A DNA stretch of 64,000 nucleotides from a virus. Location of the stretch: IMG/VR virus record IMGVR_UViG_3300032053_000032, positions 21,028 to 85,027 of that record. One strand, given 5' to 3'. Shown here piece after piece: positions 27,518 to 54,006 of this stretch (positions are counted from its first letter, which is position 1; every line of letters starts with the position of its first letter). A program made the translations under genes and the position numbers. Under the pieces are notes generated by a model that saw only the letters and a program-made list of their open reading frames with translations, was not told where the DNA came from and searched no databases.

Positions 27518-28486
27518 TTAGCTGTTGTCGTCCGACGAGGCGGCCGCGATGACCGCTGCGGTGGCAAGCTGGAAGGACACGGAACCGCTGGAGGCCGCAG
27601 TGGCGACGGGCGCCGCGGTAAAGGCCGCCATCAGGTGGGTGCGCACGGTGCTGAACTCCTCACCCTTGCTGAAGCCGAGCTTGCTGACCAGGTACGTCAT
27701 GCCCGCGCGGTCCGCCGTGATGGGCGTCGAGAGGGGGATGGAGGTCTTCCAGGTCTTGCAGCGAGCGACCATCGCGAGGCAGAGCTGGATGTACGCCTTG
27801 ACTTTGCCAGCGTGAAGGGTCGAGTTGAAGAGGCGGAACTCCACGGTGCCCTTGGTCCAGACCGCGTGAAGGTTCAGGGCCTGGTAGCGGCTGCCATCGT
27901 AGTGCGTGGGGTAGTTCTCGACACGGCCGTACCAGGCGCGTGAGAGGCCGCGCGAATCCTTGGCGATGGTAGCGCGCTCCGAAGCAGGAGCGCGGCGCAG
28001 ACGCTCGCAGAGGGTCTTGCCAAGCTTCTTGCAGTACTGTTCGCGACGGGGAAGGACCGCGAGCGACGTGAAGAGCAGATCCTGGTAGTAGTGCATGAGC
28101 GACGCGAGGTTGATGGTGTTCTGCGCCGTGAGCGACTCGGCGCCGACATGGACGTGGATGCCACACGACTCGTCAACCTGCGCGCCGCAAGCGCGAACGG
28201 CGCGAACAACCGCCTGAACCGTGTCGAGGTCGCTGTACACGAGGATGGGCGAGACGACTTCCGCGCCACCGTTACAGGGAAGCGACCCGTCGCGCATCGA
28301 CTTCCAGACGCGCCCGTCGGTGGCAGTAACGATCCAGGTATCGTAGCTATCGTGCGTGTGGGTGACGACGCCACCGACGACCGACTGAACGGCCTCTGCA
28401 ACAACCTGGCGGCTCTTGCCGAACGTTTCGACTTCGAGGCCAAAGCGGAAAGACTTCATCGACTCGGTCTGGTTCGCGGTGGTCAT
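27518..28486 (-). CDS. Amidoligase (COOH-NH2 ligase, glutamine-synthetase-like fold)
   Basis: 322 residues. Signature elements of the putative amidoligase family: FGLEVE at 15-20, CGIHVHV near 108, and GTVEFRLFNSTL in the C-terminal half. Such enzymes ligate carboxyl and amino groups to make peptide-like tags or metabolites. Two GGCT-like genes follow in the same operon. ATG is 7 nt from TATAGT, a leaderless layout. The Ala/Ser-rich C-terminal tail is not part of the fold. Confidence 0.8.
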   Translation of the reverse strand: MTTANQTESMKSFRFGLEVETFGKSRQVVAEAVQSVVGGVVTHTHDSYDTWIVTATDGRVWKSMRDGSLPCNGGAEVVSPILVYSDLDTVQAVVRAVRACGAQVDESCGIHVHVGAESLTAQNTINLASLMHYYQDLLFTSLAVLPRREQYCKKLGKTLCERLRRAPASERATIAKDSRGLSRAWYGRVENYPTHYDGSRYQALNLHAVWTKGTVEFRLFNSTLHAGKVKAYIQLCLAMVARCKTWKTSIPLSTPITADRAGMTYLVSKLGFSKGEEFSTVRTHLMAAFTAAPVATAASSGSVSFQLATAAVIAAASSDDNS

Positions 28487-48347: not shown

Positions 48348-49969
48348 TGCACGTCCAACAGCTCAAGATCAGCGACTTCATGTCTCACGATGCGAGCGTG
48401 ATCAACTTCCCGTCGTCTGGGATCGTCGTCGTCACAGGCGAAAATGGCGCTGGGAAGTCGTCCATCATTGAAGCCACTGCCGTGGGCCTGTGGGGGCGCT
48501 CGCTTCGCGGCACGAATCCCTGGCGCAAAGAAGCTGCTGGGCAGGTGCTCGTCACGACGGACAAGCTCGTGGTCTACCGGAACCGTTCTGCTTCGCGCAC
48601 CTCGATGCACTGGCGCCTGGCGACCGAAGTCGACGGGGTGTCGTTCGAGTCGACCACCAAGGCGCAGGCAGCCCTGGAAGATCACGTTGGCACGTTCGAC
48701 GTTTGGCGCCGGACTCACTGCTTTTCGGCTTCCGATGCCAGCCACTTCACGATGGCCACGGACGGTGAGCGCAAGCGGCTGCTAGAGTCGATTCTCGGAA
48801 TCGACAGGTTCGACGCTGCTCTTAACCTCTGCCGGTTGGACATACGGAGCGCGCAGGTAGCCGCTTCAGGCGCCCGAGAGGAGCAGGCCAAGTACATCGA
48901 GCGCGTCGCCCGCTACGAAAAGCAGATCGCCGATCTCAACGTTGCTGCTCCCAAAGCGTCGACCGCGGATCCTGCTGATCTTGAGAGAAAGATGGCGACG
49001 CTCATCAAGCTGGAAGTTGGATGCCGTGCTGACATTGCTGCCGCGAACGCGCTCCTCGCTGCGATGGCGCGCGTGACCGGGCAGATCGAGGAGCGGCTCC
49101 GGGTAGCGCGTCTGCGCGGCAAGGCACCCACGGTTTGCAGCTCGTGCGGGCAGAAGCTACCGGCCCACAAGCTTCACGACTACGCCGCCGAGACGTCAGC
49201 CCTCATCGCAGAACTGGACGCGCTCACGGTGGATCAAGCTGAAGAGGCTGCTGGTCTTCACGCGTCCTGCTCTGAACTAAGCGATGAACTAGCTAGCATC
49301 AGGACGCGCTATCAAGGTGTAAGCACCAAGCTACAGGAGGCCCGTGTTGTCGCCGAACGGCTAGCTACGTACGACCAGCTTCGCGGACTGGCTCAGGTAG
49401 GGCTCACGGCCGCGCAGGATGCCCTCCAGCAAGCTGCGAGCAAGATCACCGCGGCGAACTCCAAGCTCGCGCTGCTTGACGCCGTAGCGACCGTGTTGGG
49501 ACTTCGTGGTGTTCGCGCTCATGTGCTCGGGCGGGCGCTCTCGGGCATCGAGACGTGCGCCAACTCCTGGCTAGGGCGCATCGCTGGTCCCGACCTGCAG
49601 CTCACGCTGAAGTCCTACGTTGAGAAGAAGTCCGGCGGCGTGTCGGACGCGCTCGGTCTGGAGATCCGCGGCGCGGGCGGCGGGGAAGGGTACCGTGCAG
49701 CATCCGGTGGTGAGCGCCGCCGCATCGACATCGCTCTCCTGCTCGCGCTCGCTGAAGTCTCACAGCAAGCCTTCGGGCAGGATCCAGGCACGCTGTTCTT
49801 CGATGAGGTCTTCGACGCGCTTGACGCCGATGGGGTAGAAGCCGTATCCGTCGCGCTTGGTGAGCTAGCAGAGGACCGCGTCGTGGTAATCGTGAGCCAC
49901 TCGTCGGAGCTTGTCGCGCGGCTTCCTGCTACGTTGCGCCTGCACGTTTCCCACGGAAAGGTTTCCTGA
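48347..49969 (+). CDS. SbcC/gp46-like SMC-type ATPase
   Basis: 540 residues. Walker A GENGAGKSS near 30, zinc hook CSSC near 264, ABC signature SGGERRRIDIALLLALA near 450 and Walker B LFFDEVFDALD near 483. The coiled-coil arms are short, as in gp46. Acts with the SbcD-like subunit. Overlaps its neighbours on both sides. Confidence 0.85.
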   Translation: MHVQQLKISDFMSHDASVINFPSSGIVVVTGENGAGKSSIIEATAVGLWGRSLRGTNPWRKEAAGQVLVTTDKLVVYRNRSASRTSMHWRLATEVDGVSFESTTKAQAALEDHVGTFDVWRRTHCFSASDASHFTMATDGERKRLLESILGIDRFDAALNLCRLDIRSAQVAASGAREEQAKYIERVARYEKQIADLNVAAPKASTADPADLERKMATLIKLEVGCRADIAAANALLAAMARVTGQIEERLRVARLRGKAPTVCSSCGQKLPAHKLHDYAAETSALIAELDALTVDQAEEAAGLHASCSELSDELASIRTRYQGVSTKLQEARVVAERLATYDQLRGLAQVGLTAAQDALQQAASKITAANSKLALLDAVATVLGLRGVRAHVLGRALSGIETCANSWLGRIAGPDLQLTLKSYVEKKSGGVSDALGLEIRGAGGGEGYRAASGGERRRIDIALLLALAEVSQQAFGQDPGTLFFDEVFDALDADGVEAVSVALGELAEDRVVVIVSHSSELVARLPATLRLHVSHGKVS

Positions 49970-50541
49970 TGGACGCCAAGATCACTTCGCCGAATCCGCT
50001 ATCTGCTCCTGTTCACCCGCTCGACTCTCTCAAGTGGGTAGACCCGACCACGCTGCACGCGAATGGCTGGAATCCGAATCGCGTATTCGGCCCCGAGTTT
50101 GAGCTGCTGAAGCTCTCAATCCTTGAAGATGGGTGGACGCAGCCCGTAGTCGCTCGCCCAGATGGCACCATCATCGACGGCTTTCACCGCTGGACCTTGT
50201 CCCTGAAGGATGAAGACGTCCGCCGCGTATCTGGCGGCCTTGTCCCGGTGGTCTTCACGCGTTCGACCGACGCCGCTGCACAGATGATGTCGACCGTGCG
50301 GCACAACCGCGCGCGCGGACAGCACGGGATTCTGGCGATGGGTGAGATCGTCCGCACGATCCGCGCGGAGGGCGTATCCGACGAGGAGATCTGCCGCCGC
50401 CTCGGGATGGAGATCGAGGAGCTGGACCGTCTCGGCGAGACGCGCTCGATGGCAGAGCGGCACGGTCAGGACTCGTTCGGGAAGGGATGGGTCCCGGTTC
50501 CAGAAGCTGGCGGGCTCTCCAAGAAAAAGAAGAAGTCCTAG
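49969..50541 (+). CDS. ParB/IbrB-like protein 1
   Basis: 190 residues. ParB nuclease-type domain with GPEFELLKLSILEDGWTQPV, then DGTIIDGFHRWTLSL and VRHNRARGQHG. Lys-rich end (LSKKKKKS). Paired with a converging IbrA-like PAPS reductase whose stop it overlaps by 4 bp, as in IbrAB gene pairs. Confidence 0.75.
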   Translation: MDAKITSPNPLSAPVHPLDSLKWVDPTTLHANGWNPNRVFGPEFELLKLSILEDGWTQPVVARPDGTIIDGFHRWTLSLKDEDVRRVSGGLVPVVFTRSTDAAAQMMSTVRHNRARGQHGILAMGEIVRTIRAEGVSDEEICRRLGMEIEELDRLGETRSMAERHGQDSFGKGWVPVPEAGGLSKKKKKS

Positions 50542-51734
50542 CTGTCGTCCTCTTCGAGCATCCCCTGATCGTTTGCGATCAGCTCAACTGGAATCGCCGC
50601 CATCGCTGCGTACTGCATGCGTCCCTTGAAATCCCCCTTCATCACGACCTTGAGCAGGTACTTCCAGTACGAGTCGATTACTGGCTTGTTGCCGGTCTTC
50701 TTGTTCCAGTACCTGAGCGACCACCGTACGCATTCAGCGATGCGCGGACGGTCGGCCGGCATCCACTTTAGGATCTCCTCGCGAACGCGCTCCTCCCACG
50801 TCTGTCCAGGCGCAGGACCAGGGATGTCCGCAGCGCTCGCTCCATACAGAGGCGACCTGCTGTACTTCGCCGCTGTGCGGGCACCTGGTACCCTACCGAT
50901 GCACTTCTCCCACAGCTCTGGCCAGCAGAGCGCCCAGTACCAGAGGCCGCGTGACGGCTCCTCGCCGAACGGCGGTGCGCACCGCTGCGAAGCCATGGGA
51001 ACCCCAACTGCCGAGAGGAGTTCGTACGTCTTGTTGGTATCCCAGCCGAACTTGGCCGGCGCTGTCCAGACGTCCTCGGTCTTCCAGTCATAGATGGGCT
51101 TCGCCTTGTAGATCCCGTTACCGTCGGCGAAGTTGTCCACGTGGATGTAATTGTCCTCGGTCCGCCCGATGACCGAGTGATACCTCAGCATGGACTCTTG
51201 AGCGCGCACGCCGTTCAACTGGCAAACCGTTCCCCACTCGCGGGGGTAGATGAACTCGTTACACTTCGGCATCGAGCGCCGTTCCCAGCGTGGGAGCATG
51301 TCAGCCGTGATCGCCCCTTCGGGCAGAGCGCGTACCCAGATCTTCTCGTCTTCGGGTGCCCACGGTGACCACCACGGCTGACGCTCGGAGCAGGAGTTCC
51401 TGTGCATCACGGGTAGGCACAGCCACCGGAGGTTCACGCCGTCCATCTGCCGGACGCGCTCGACGTACTCCACGGTTTGCAGGCTGATGCACTCCTCGTC
51501 GAAGAACGCTACGTCGATCGGGAGCTTGCCCTTCTGACGCGCAACATCGAGTGCAACCTGCAGGACCACGGTCGAGTCCTTGCCACCAGAGAACGCCACC
51601 GAGATACGGTCGAACCTGTCGACCAGCTTGGCAACGCGCTCGCACGACATGTCGTACACGTTCTCGGTGGAGAACTCGCGCCGCACCTTTGGTAGATAGC
51701 CTTCCTTGGCAAACTCGCGGCGTACCTTGCTCAC
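50538..51734 (-). CDS. IbrA-like PAPS-reductase-family protein (DUF3440 type)
   Basis: 398 residues, start ATG 51734. PP-loop SGGKDS at 49-54 marks the adenylating ATP-pyrophosphatase fold shared with PAPS reductase and DndC. The length fits DUF3440/IbrA proteins. The N-terminus repeats KVRREF twice (3-8 and 16-21). Convergent to ParB-like 1 and downstream of PAPSR 2, a cupin and ParB-like 2, all on the minus strand. Reaction in phages unknown; sulfur or nucleotide chemistry is likely. Confidence 0.75.
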   Translation of the reverse strand: MSKVRREFAKEGYLPKVRREFSTENVYDMSCERVAKLVDRFDRISVAFSGGKDSTVVLQVALDVARQKGKLPIDVAFFDEECISLQTVEYVERVRQMDGVNLRWLCLPVMHRNSCSERQPWWSPWAPEDEKIWVRALPEGAITADMLPRWERRSMPKCNEFIYPREWGTVCQLNGVRAQESMLRYHSVIGRTEDNYIHVDNFADGNGIYKAKPIYDWKTEDVWTAPAKFGWDTNKTYELLSAVGVPMASQRCAPPFGEEPSRGLWYWALCWPELWEKCIGRVPGARTAAKYSRSPLYGASAADIPGPAPGQTWEERVREEILKWMPADRPRIAECVRWSLRYWNKKTGNKPVIDSYWKYLLKVVMKGDFKGRMQYAAMAAIPVELIANDQGMLEEDDS

Positions 51735-52570
51735 TTGGGTGTCAACCCACGTCCCGAGCCAACGATCTTGCTGCGTCTCTCCGGAGAGAGCGAGAGGATC
51801 TCCTCGATCTGCGCGCTGTACTTCGTGAGGATCGACGGCTCAAGGCGCATCGTGTCTTCTCGGGAGGCGAGAGGCCATGCCACACCTCCGAGCTTGAAGC
51901 CACCCTCGATGGCGTAGAAGGCCGGTAGCTTCAGATCGTGCTTGGCCATGTACGCGAATACCGCCTCGTGCGGCCAATCGTAGATCGGATTGACGACGGT
52001 GTAGCCATCCTTGCTGCGGTTGAAACCCTCGCCGTTTCCGACGTGATTCCCGTCGATAGTGCGTCGTCCAAGCAAGACCGCATCGAGGTTGTACTTCTTA
52101 AAGAAGAGGCGCTGCGCTCGCCAGTTCATGCTCATGCCGGTCGTGCTGTCCTTGGAGAAGCTCTTTTCCCGGCCTACACGTCCAGGCCAGAAGGCCGTGG
52201 GGTTCTTGCGGAGCCAATCCCAGCTCAGCCCTCGGTCCGTGCGGATCACTCCAGGTGGCGTGTGCTTCGCCAGGAAGTCGACGAACGTCGTGAACTCGAA
52301 CGTTGGCTCAACAACGATGATGAAGCCGTCCCGGATGCCAAGCTGAGCGAGCGCCAGGTGGTACAGAACTTGTGAGTCCTTACCCCCAGACCAGCCAACG
52401 AACAGTCGCGGCCCGATGTCCTTCTGCGCCTTTTCGATCCGCCGGACCGCTCGCCCTACGAACTCGTCCAGCTCCTCTTCGGAGATGTAGTCGAACGGGT
52501 TGGCCTGCACGATGCGCCACGCGCTGTCCGGGATGTTCTTGCTGTGCTTGACCCCGAGGATCGTGTGCAT
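51731..52570 (-). CDS. PAPS-reductase-family protein 2
   Basis: 279 residues from ATG 52570, 2 nt after the cupin stop. SGGKDSQVLYHLAL at 61-74 is the PP-loop; IVVEPTFEFTTFVDFLAK and LGRRTIDGN follow as in the family. Shorter than PAPSR 1 and clearly diverged. Overlaps PAPSR 1 start by ATGA. Confidence 0.75.
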   Translation of the reverse strand: MHTILGVKHSKNIPDSAWRIVQANPFDYISEEELDEFVGRAVRRIEKAQKDIGPRLFVGWSGGKDSQVLYHLALAQLGIRDGFIIVVEPTFEFTTFVDFLAKHTPPGVIRTDRGLSWDWLRKNPTAFWPGRVGREKSFSKDSTTGMSMNWRAQRLFFKKYNLDAVLLGRRTIDGNHVGNGEGFNRSKDGYTVVNPIYDWPHEAVFAYMAKHDLKLPAFYAIEGGFKLGGVAWPLASREDTMRLEPSILTKYSAQIEEILSLSPERRSKIVGSGRGLTPK

Positions 52571-52572
52571 AA

Positions 52573-53289
52573 TTACGCGCCTTCGTGCTTGGTCGAGTCC
52601 GCGTTGATGTACGTGCGGTTCTTCATCGGGTGCATCGTGTCCGACGGTCCCCAGTCCGAGTCCGGATGGAATGCGATGATGTCCATGTCCTCGTCGGACT
52701 CCGTCGTTCGGAAGGAGTGCATCTCCTGAGCATCGAGCGCGAAGATGCAGCCTGGCGACAGCGCGTGCTCCCACATGTCACTCCTGCCGATCCTGTTCGG
52801 ACCGAAGGCGATCCCGTGACCGCGCGCCACGACGCCGAGTCGGATCGACGGGTGCGTGTGCTGCGACTGCTTGATCCCCGGAGGGAAGTGCAGGTAGTTC
52901 AGAACCGGGTCGCCAAGGCGCGCCGGGTAGGCCAGCATCGAGTCGGAGCAGCCGTCGATGTAGCTGAGGCGCCCCTGCTTCTCCGTGCCGCCCATCGAGA
53001 GCTGCGCGCGATGCCCGTAGCGGTAGAACACCACGACCTTCCCATCGGCGTCTGGGGTGAGTATCCACTCACCTGGTATCGCGAAGAAGCTGCCCTCCTT
53101 GAGGGTTGCCAAGATCCCGGGCGCGCTGACTTCGGCGTATCCGGAGAGCACATAGCCGTAAGAGGTCCCGGTCCGCTCGCCGACTTCCTGACCTACCCCG
53201 GTCGGCCCGTACACGACCAGCTTGGACGGGTACATGGTTTCGCTGAAGTCGAACTGGTCGCCGTGCTTCGGTTCCTTGATGAGCTTCAT
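52573..53289 (-). CDS. Cupin-fold protein
   Basis: 238 residues. Beta-rich with the cupin motif HTHPSIRLGVVARGHGIAFG near 144-163 and a first half that may be a second cupin (SYGYVLSGYAEVSAPGILAT). Cupins bind metals for diverse chemistry. Its location between ParB-like 2 and PAPSR 2 suggests it belongs to the same pathway. Confidence 0.65.
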   Translation of the reverse strand: MKLIKEPKHGDQFDFSETMYPSKLVVYGPTGVGQEVGERTGTSYGYVLSGYAEVSAPGILATLKEGSFFAIPGEWILTPDADGKVVVFYRYGHRAQLSMGGTEKQGRLSYIDGCSDSMLAYPARLGDPVLNYLHFPPGIKQSQHTHPSIRLGVVARGHGIAFGPNRIGRSDMWEHALSPGCIFALDAQEMHSFRTTESDEDMDIIAFHPDSDWGPSDTMHPMKNRTYINADSTKHEGA

Positions 53290-53298
53290 CGTCGTCTC

Positions 53299-54006
53299 CT
53301 ACTCCGCTTGAGTGTCCGTGAACGTCTCGCAGATGCGCGCCAAGGCATCTGCGGTTGTGCCGCCGTCCTTCTTCTTCGACTGCTTCAGCGCCGCCAGCAC
53401 CGTGAGGTTCTGCTCCTTGGTGAGCGACACCGAGAAGTTGAGGAACTCCGAAGGAGGCAGGGCTGCCGCGGGGCCATGACCTGTCTCGTTCGTACCACCT
53501 GGTGGGGGTGCTGTCATGTCATCGAGGAAGGACGTCCCAGCCGCAGCGAGCTGTTCGATCTCGACCGACGTGAATCCTGTGGTCTTGACGATCCAGTCAG
53601 CCGTCGCCTTGGACGGATCCTGCGCCATCATCTCGTCGATGTACGCGGTCAGCCCGGCGTAGTCCCAGTCTGCGGAGATGCGGTTGAGCGCGAGCACCAG
53701 CGCCTTCGCTTGGGTGTCGTCGGTAACATCCACGATCACGACGTGAACCTTGGCCGCGCCGCTCGTCTTCAGCTCGTCGTACCTGTGATGGCCGTTCAGG
53801 ATCTCGTAACGGCCCTTGGTCTTCCCCTCCCGGACGATGATCGGCTCGACCACGCCGAACTCGTGAAGCGAGCTGTGCAGAACCGCCTTCATCCCTGCCT
53901 GCATCACGCGAGGGTTGCCCGCGGCGAACCCATCGATCTTATCGAGAGGCACCTCCGCGAGCTTCTTGATCCTGGAAACAGGGGCGCTTAGCGTCGTGGT
54001 TGTCAT
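53299..54006 (-). CDS. ParB-like protein 2
   Basis: 235 residues from ATG 54006, 7 nt below a promoter-like -10. ParB-type domain: VPLDKIDGFAAGNPR, then EFGVVEPIIVREGK, GRYEILNGHHRYDELKTSG and ALNRISADWDYAGL. Pro/Gly linker near 165-185, then a Lys-rich helix. First gene of a four-gene minus-strand unit. Confidence 0.75.
   Translation of the reverse strand: MTTTTLSAPVSRIKKLAEVPLDKIDGFAAGNPRVMQAGMKAVLHSSLHEFGVVEPIIVREGKTKGRYEILNGHHRYDELKTSGAAKVHVVIVDVTDDTQAKALVLALNRISADWDYAGLTAYIDEMMAQDPSKATADWIVKTTGFTSVEIEQLAAAGTSFLDDMTAPPPGGTNETGHGPAAALPPSEFLNFSVSLTKEQNLTVLAALKQSKKKDGGTTADALARICETFTDTQAE

What the first reader, a model, noticed from the sequence alone, without database searches (positions are those of the whole stretch)
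49969..54006. Doubled ParB/PAPS-reductase (IbrAB-like) locus with a cupin
Two ParB-like proteins flank two PP-loop PAPS-reductase-like proteins and a cupin; the outer pair is convergent. IbrA/IbrB-type pairs are known in prophages, but a double set with a cupin is striking. Proximity to a Dam methylase and similarity of the PP-loop family to DndC suggest DNA or nucleotide modification, sulfur chemistry or counter-defence.
Basis: partly seen in the sequence, partly recalled or inferred. Interest (0 to 1): 0.68.

Follow-up and report, generated by a model that had tools for sequence, protein, structure and literature searches.

The report
Phage DNA-hypermodification cassette with bicupin
A phage carries a conserved set of five genes (two different ParB-like proteins, two ATP-using 'PAPS-reductase-like' enzymes and a metal-binding cupin) that probably adds an unknown chemical group to its DNA; genes usually labelled 'sulfur metabolism' in phages may really be DNA-disguise enzymes.

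Summary
The five genes are real and at the stated places. They are not a doubled IbrAB set: ParB1 and ParB2 belong to different families, as do PapA and PapB. In about 60 other loci, nearly all viral, the same genes run ParB2-bicupin-(PapB)-PapA-ParB1 on one strand, often just before the terminase; the window differs by a local inversion. The best lead to function comes from cultured Bclasvirinae mycobacteriophages. There, the slot between a ParB2-family gene 1 and a conserved terminase holds a dPreQ0 cassette (Rosebush type; others measured the modified DNA), an amino acid:DNA-transferase cassette, or PapA-ParB1. I therefore read the locus as a DNA-hypermodification cassette. Sulfur chemistry is disfavoured: window PapB has no cysteine, no family member has the PAPS-reductase ECGIH motif, and PapA lacks a conserved three-cysteine cluster. 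The bicupin family usually sits beside a PP-loop ATPase gene. Some other PapA loci have an ectoine-synthase-type cupin instead, once with CmoA-like and C5-methylase genes. My model is activation or ligation by PapA and tailoring by the cupin. The base, the product and any counter-defence effect are unknown. No bicupin match was found in 50,697 GenBank phage records.

The parts
49969..50541 (+). ParB1: IbrB-type ParB/sulfiredoxin-fold protein (PHROG 2159), with conserved DGFHR and TxxHNRARGxH motifs
   Evidence: present beside PapA in all 24 bicupin-free PapA loci and 57 of 62 bicupin loci; overlaps SbcC by 1 bp and PapA by 4 bp
50538..51734 (-). PapA: IbrA-type PP-loop ATP pyrophosphatase (PAPS_reduct + DUF3440), SGGKDS motif, no PAPS-reductase catalytic Cys motif
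   Evidence: AlphaFold model mean pLDDT 88.7, nearest folds CysH, FAD synthase, CysD, LarE
51731..52570 (-). PapB: second PP-loop protein (PAPS_reduct), SGGKDS motif, no cysteine residue; optional in the family
   Evidence: in 11 of 62 bicupin loci
52573..53289 (-). bicupin: two-domain cupin with conserved HxH (144, 146), H191, R150, C114, H208 and H220
   Evidence: (116 sequences); AlphaFold model mean pLDDT 94.4; nearest solved folds are bicupins of varied function, TM about 0.5-0.6
53299..54006 (-). ParB2: ParB protein similar to PHROG 620/723, to the ParB domain of phage ParB-methyltransferase fusions (PHROG 498), and to gp1 of mycobacteriophage modification cassettes

Best explanation
The locus is a phage DNA-hypermodification cassette. 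Inferred mechanism: PapA (with PapB where present) uses its SGGKDS PP-loop to activate a substrate by adenylation and joins a group to a DNA base or its precursor nucleotide, as an AMP-forming ligase rather than a sulfur reductase. The bicupin, a metal-site enzyme, then tailors the product by an isomerase, cyclase or oxygenase step. ParB2 and ParB1 bind NTP and/or DNA and couple or regulate installation, like DpdB and DndB. The likely benefit is protection from host nucleases. Shown here: gene content, conserved order, intact motifs, loss of the sulfur-chemistry motifs, and occupation of a proven modification slot in related phages. Inferred: target base, reaction order, product and benefit.
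For: Slot replacement. In Faze9 (species Rosebushvirus rosebush) the order is ParB gp1-DpdA-QueC-QueD-QueE-FolE-TerL, and Rosebush DNA has dPreQ0 at about 28% of G (PMC6884629). In Gadjet the same slot is ParB gp1-gp2-gp3-PapA-ParB1-TerL. In VioletZ it is ParB gp1-Tet/JBP-like (below cut-off)-ADDT (above cut-off)-adk-TerL. TerL of Faze9 and Gadjet are 60% identical and their gp1 48%. The ParB2 profile matches all three gp1 (6e-17 to 1e-14, against 3e-6 for Gadjet's ParB1). OSmaximus and Imvubu show neither a ParB nor a cassette at that slot. DpdB is a ParB-like ATPase of the dPreQ0 system (PMC12839542). An asparagine-synthetase homologue (CmoY) ligates glycine to carboxymethylcytosine in phage DNA, with ParB-domain genes in many such contigs (PMC12783734). 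One PapA locus (L017, and its near copy L018) holds CmoA-like and C5-methylase genes near PapA-EctC-ParB1. PapA and ParB1 match 215 and 221 GenBank phages with the same leading host counts.
Against: I found no paper in which nucleosides of a PapA-ParB1 phage were measured. A pre-terminase slot can also be a hotspot for unrelated accessory genes. The window record lacks an obvious enzyme that makes a reactive handle on the base: no C5 methylase, CmoA or thymidylate synthase match. Relatives of the bicupin also occur in bacterial contigs beside AsnB without ParB genes, so the enzyme pair is not restricted to phage DNA work. IbrAB was originally described as a transcription co-activator.
Confidence: 0.6

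Rival explanations
1. IbrAB-type gene regulator: PapA-ParB1 act as transcription co-activators of phage genes, and ParB2 and the cupin are ligand-sensing accessories.
For: E. coli IbrAB was described as an activator of prophage eib genes (Sandt 2002, cited in PMC10434257). The Escherichia phage PhiR5_2 pair lies next to antirepressor genes. DndB, another ParB-like protein, was described as an ATP-dependent repressor (PMC12704722). Cupins can be sensor domains (general knowledge).
Against: PapA and PapB keep an intact PP-loop motif and the bicupin an intact metal site over large divergence, which suggests catalysis. No phage-integrase match in this record. The module occupies the slot of base-modification cassettes. 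Regulation could be a by-product of DNA modification.
Confidence: 0.13
2. Phosphorothioate-like or other sulfur modification of DNA, with PapA as a DndC-like sulfurtransferase and a ParB in the role of DndB.
For: PapA shows weak matches to DndC (2e-4; 2.5e-6) and to BrxP. ParB plus PAPS-reductase-like gene content resembles DndB/DndC.
Against: DndC has a three-cysteine 4Fe-4S centre and a further cysteine dyad (PMC10853773). PapA has one Cys column above 90% and the next at 67%; window PapB has no Cys. I noticed no DndD or DndE analogue beside the module (not searched with profiles). No cysteine desulfurase family match in the record, although hosts can supply it.
Confidence: 0.1
3. Modification of a protein, peptide or small molecule (virion protein or host metabolite) by a PP-loop ligase plus cupin, with the ParBs as DNA-linked regulators.
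For: The bicupin also pairs with AsnB in 35 bacterial loci and with an AsnB/QueC-like PP-loop family in 22 viral and 11 bacterial loci, mostly without ParB. Some bacterial neighbours (c10) appear to end in (F/Y)G, which may mark a C-terminal peptide substrate (read by eye).
Against: In the PapA branch two ParB families are conserved, many loci lie by the terminase, and the slot is shared with DNA-modification cassettes.
Confidence: 0.13
4. Auxiliary metabolic gene for sulfate assimilation (true PAPS reductase).
For: This is the usual annotation, for example in PMC6145125 and PMC10434257.
Against: The ECG(I/L)H catalytic-cysteine motif is absent in 99 of 99 PapA and 14 of 14 PapB. NCBIfam PAPS-reductase models score far below cut-off (for example 21.9 against 154 bits).
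Confidence: 0.02

Closest known systems
IbrA/IbrB pair (DUF3440 PP-loop protein + ParB)
   Same: PapA and ParB1 profiles match the annotated IbrA and IbrB of Escherichia phage PhiR5_2 (E 5.5e-116 and 1.1e-69)
   Different: Adds ParB2, the bicupin and PapB; often by the terminase; I found no established biochemistry for IbrAB itself
dPreQ0 (DpdA/DpdB/Que) cassette of Rosebush-type mycobacteriophages
   Same: Same genomic slot as PapA-ParB1 in related phages, first gene a ParB matching the ParB2 profile, one PP-loop enzyme (QueC)
   Different: No DpdA or Que enzymes in the window's module; the PP-loop proteins are PAPS-reductase-like, not QueC; a cupin is added
CmoA-CmoX-CmoY carboxymethylcytosine/glycine system (phage S-B43)
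   Same: ATP-dependent asparagine-synthetase homologue working with other base-modifying genes, ParB-domain genes often nearby; PapA-EctC-ParB1 shares a locus with CmoA-like and C5-methylase genes in L017
   Different: No CmoA or C5 methylase match in this record; PapA is not AsnB-like
Dnd phosphorothioation (DndB/DndC)
   Same: ParB-like plus PAPS-reductase-like proteins
   Different: No conserved cysteine cluster, no DndA-family match; DndD and DndE not noticed but not searched with profiles

Membership tests
IbrAB pair | IbrA-type DUF3440/PAPS_reduct protein beside an IbrB-type ParB | tested here: met
   PF11922 above cut-off; PapA and ParB1 profiles match annotated IbrA/IbrB of PhiR5_2
IbrAB pair | Activates transcription of prophage genes | not testable with these tools
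   needs experiment
True PAPS reductase (CysH) | Catalytic ECG(I/L)H cysteine motif | tested here: not met
   0 of 99 PapA, 0 of 14 PapB
DndC / phosphorothioation | Three-cysteine 4Fe-4S centre plus cysteine dyad | tested here: not met
   single Cys column above 90% in PapA; window PapB has no Cys
DndC / phosphorothioation | DndA/IscS-type cysteine desulfurase in the same record | tested here: not met
   PF00266 no match; the host could supply it
dPreQ0/Dpd cassette | DpdA transglycosylase and Que enzymes in the module | tested here: not met
   none of the five proteins is of these families; the rest of the 85 kb record was not searched for TGT or QueC
dPreQ0/Dpd cassette | ParB-family partner | tested here: met
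   ParB2 profile matches Faze9 gp1; both hit PHROG 723
CmoA/CmoX/CmoY | CmoA and C5-methylase in the record | tested here: not met
   TIGR00740 and PF00145 no match in the record
Phage DNA-hypermodification cassette (general) | Modified nucleoside in virion DNA dependent on the genes | not testable with these tools
   needs LC-MS/MS
Metal-binding cupin enzyme | Conserved His metal ligands in a double-stranded beta-helix | tested here: met
   H144, H146 and H191 conserved in 99-100% of 116 sequences; bicupin fold model. Metal and activity not tested

The most novel reading that the evidence does not exclude
A sulfur-free DNA-hypermodification pathway in which a PAPS-reductase-like PP-loop enzyme acts as an AMP-forming ligase on a DNA base and a cupin, either a bicupin or an ectoine-synthase-type cupin, cyclises or rearranges the adduct. 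Many viral 'cysH' and 'ectoine synthase' auxiliary metabolic genes would then be DNA-modification genes.
Probability: 0.33. Interest if true: 0.85.

Novelty: new variant of a known kind. Interest (0 to 1): 0.62.

Why it matters
PAPS-reductase-like (cysH) genes are often reported as sulfur-metabolism genes in viruses, and I found no biochemical role for IbrAB. If the slot replacement reflects function, hundreds of phage genomes carry an unrecognised base-modification pathway, testable in already isolated laboratory phages of Mycobacterium smegmatis and Arthrobacter. It also points to a bicupin family that pairs with three kinds of PP-loop ATPase and whose chemistry is open.

Tried and rejected
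Sulfate assimilation and phosphorothioation: catalytic cysteines absent. Duplicated IbrAB: families differ. Methyltransferase as a standard partner: the RHph_I4 'DNA methyltransferase' matches only ParB_N in Pfam; Laroye gp8 has no Pfam hit and its PHROG label is not independent evidence. CmoX/CmoA near the AsnB-like/bicupin loci: a motif scan found no C5 methylase there. Bicupin relatives in named phages: none at E 0.001-0.01 with three queries; the BFVD structure search gave no good match. Relatives of PapB and of the bicupin with single sequences in viral contigs: none; the alignment query worked. Exclusion between EctC and bicupin: 9 of 24 loci against 0 of 62, but only 4 of 15 against 0 of 31 groups after 85% clustering (P 0.008) and not significant at 60% clustering, so it is suggestive only; the P value of 5.5e-7 printed for raw loci used 10 instead of 9 and ignores relatedness, so I do not rely on it. 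The Tet_JBP search of the record is uninformative because its controls were silent.

Full report
OBSERVATION. ParB1 is on the + strand and follows SbcC with a 1-bp overlap; PapA, PapB, bicupin and ParB2 form a tight minus-strand run that converges on ParB1. ParB1 (best PHROG 2159) and ParB2 (best PHROG 620, then 498 and 723) are different families, and PapA (DUF3440 + PAPS_reduct) differs from PapB (PAPS_reduct only). So this is not a duplicated IbrAB set.

CONSERVATION. PapA found 30 viral loci. An alignment of the cupins found 445 viral and 152 bacterial-genome relatives, of which 80 each were kept. Of 62 loci with both bicupin and PapA, 58 have ParB2, 57 ParB1, 11 PapB and 5 a separate class-II glutamine amidotransferase; 43 are exactly ParB2-bicupin-PapA-ParB1 on one strand; 37 have a detected terminase within 8 kb. 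These loci are related to each other: 31 groups at 85% PapA identity, 27 with ParB2 and 29 with ParB1. L100 has the same wider layout as the window (polymerase, SSB, RecA, SbcD, SbcC, module, TerS, TerL) but with the whole module on the + strand, so the window carries a local inversion. The closest bicupin, L032 (58% identical), sits in a ParB-bicupin-PapB-amidotransferase-PapA-ParB1-TerL run. Three bicupin queries matched nothing among 50,697 GenBank phage records, which may explain why I found no description of the module. PapA and ParB1 match 215 and 221 of those records, with equal counts for the commonest hosts.

FUNCTION BY POSITION. In Bclasvirinae mycobacteriophages the genome start before TerL is a swap site. 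Faze9, of the same species as Rosebush, carries ParB-DpdA-QueC-QueD-QueE-FolE-TerL, and Rosebush DNA was shown to carry dPreQ0 at about 28% of G (PMC6884629). Gadjet carries ParB-gp2-gp3-PapA-ParB1-TerL. VioletZ carries ParB-(Tet/JBP-like, below cut-off)-ADDT-adk-TerL. OSmaximus and Imvubu have neither the ParB nor a cassette there. The terminases of Faze9 and Gadjet are 60% identical and their first ParB genes 48%. The three first ParB genes match the ParB2 profile at 6e-17 to 1e-14, better than Gadjet's ParB1 at 3e-6. Only the first 5-9 kb of each genome was read. Laroye (ParB2-PapA-ParB1-gp8-TerS-TerL), Pioen (ParB2-PapA-ParB1) and RHph_I4 show that the two-ParB frame around PapA exists in cultured phages without the bicupin.

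CHEMISTRY. PapA and PapB keep SGGKDS (93 of 99 and 12 of 14). None has ECG(I/L)H. Window PapB has no cysteine; PapA has one cysteine column at 94% and the next at 67%. This argues against PAPS reduction and DndC-type thiolation (DndC features from PMC10853773). The PapA model (pLDDT 88.7) is nearest to CysH, FAD synthase, CysD and LarE. The bicupin model (pLDDT 94.4) is nearest to bicupins of varied function at TM about 0.5-0.6, so fold does not name the reaction. The family keeps H144, H146, R150, H191, C114, H208 and H220 at 99-100% across phage and bacterial members.

PARTNERS. In viral loci the bicupin lies beside PapA (57) or an AsnB/QueC-like PP-loop family, c7 (22), with 7 unassigned; in bacterial-genome loci beside AsnB (35), c7 (11), PapA (5), or none of these (29). 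The c7 assignment rests on its SGGIDST motif and weak QueC and TilS matches. In some PapA loci without the bicupin, an ectoine-synthase-type cupin (PF06339, 2.9e-35 to 2e-40 in L015 and L017, 5.5e-32 in L020) is next to ParB1, and in phage Gaia (1.3e-32) it is fused to it. In L017 (near copy L018) CmoA-like (TIGR00740 3e-24, below cut-off) and C5-methylase genes lie within about 4 kb of PapA-EctC-ParB1. CmoA, CmoX and CmoY make glycyl-carboxymethylcytosine in DNA, CmoY being an asparagine-synthetase homologue (PMC12783734). This is the basis for proposing that PapA is an AMP-forming ligase and the cupin a tailoring enzyme. It is inference: the window record has no C5 methylase, CmoA, thymidylate synthase or amidotransferase match, so the handle on the base, if any, is unknown.

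VERDICT. A DNA-hypermodification cassette of a new make-up is the best-supported reading (0.6). Regulation, protein or metabolite modification, and phosphorothioation remain open at about 0.1 each. Nothing here shows a modified base.

Noticed in passing
window 27518-28486 (-): Amidoligase_2 protein (PF12224, E 3.9e-52) encoded in a phage genome; role unknown.
   Followed up: no
L131:5401-6432, L145, L134, L162, L163 (cluster c10): Bacterial AsnB-bicupin loci include a ~330-aa protein with a weak TOPRIM match whose copies appear to end in (F/Y)G, perhaps a C-terminal modification site.
   Followed up: partly
L087, L094, L083, L110 (cluster c7): Phage loci with one to three PP-loop (SGGIDST...GEHxDQLFGSD) genes beside the bicupin and no ParB; no Pfam family found for the copy tested.
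   Followed up: partly
L015:10686-11093, L017:9317-9700, L020:6371-6736, L028:9302-9691; Gaia gp104 (L193:6308-7207): Ectoine-synthase-family cupins next to or fused with IbrB-type ParB in phages; probably not ectoine synthesis.
   Followed up: partly
L017:10232-10630, L028:10207-10620, L016:7177-7581: Small (~135 aa) related 'KWE' proteins near PapA/ParB1; the L017 copy has no Pfam or NCBIfam match.
   Followed up: no
L004:7322-8011 (-), L032:4723-5880, L034:13171-14082 (-), L005:10684-11526, L169:2079-2765: Stand-alone class-II glutamine amidotransferase-like genes inside or beside the PapA-bicupin module.
   Followed up: partly
VioletZ gp1-gp3 (L197:1-2826): Coopervirus pre-terminase cassette ParB2-Tet/JBP-like-ADDT, annotated hypothetical; a probable base-modification cassette.
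   Followed up: partly
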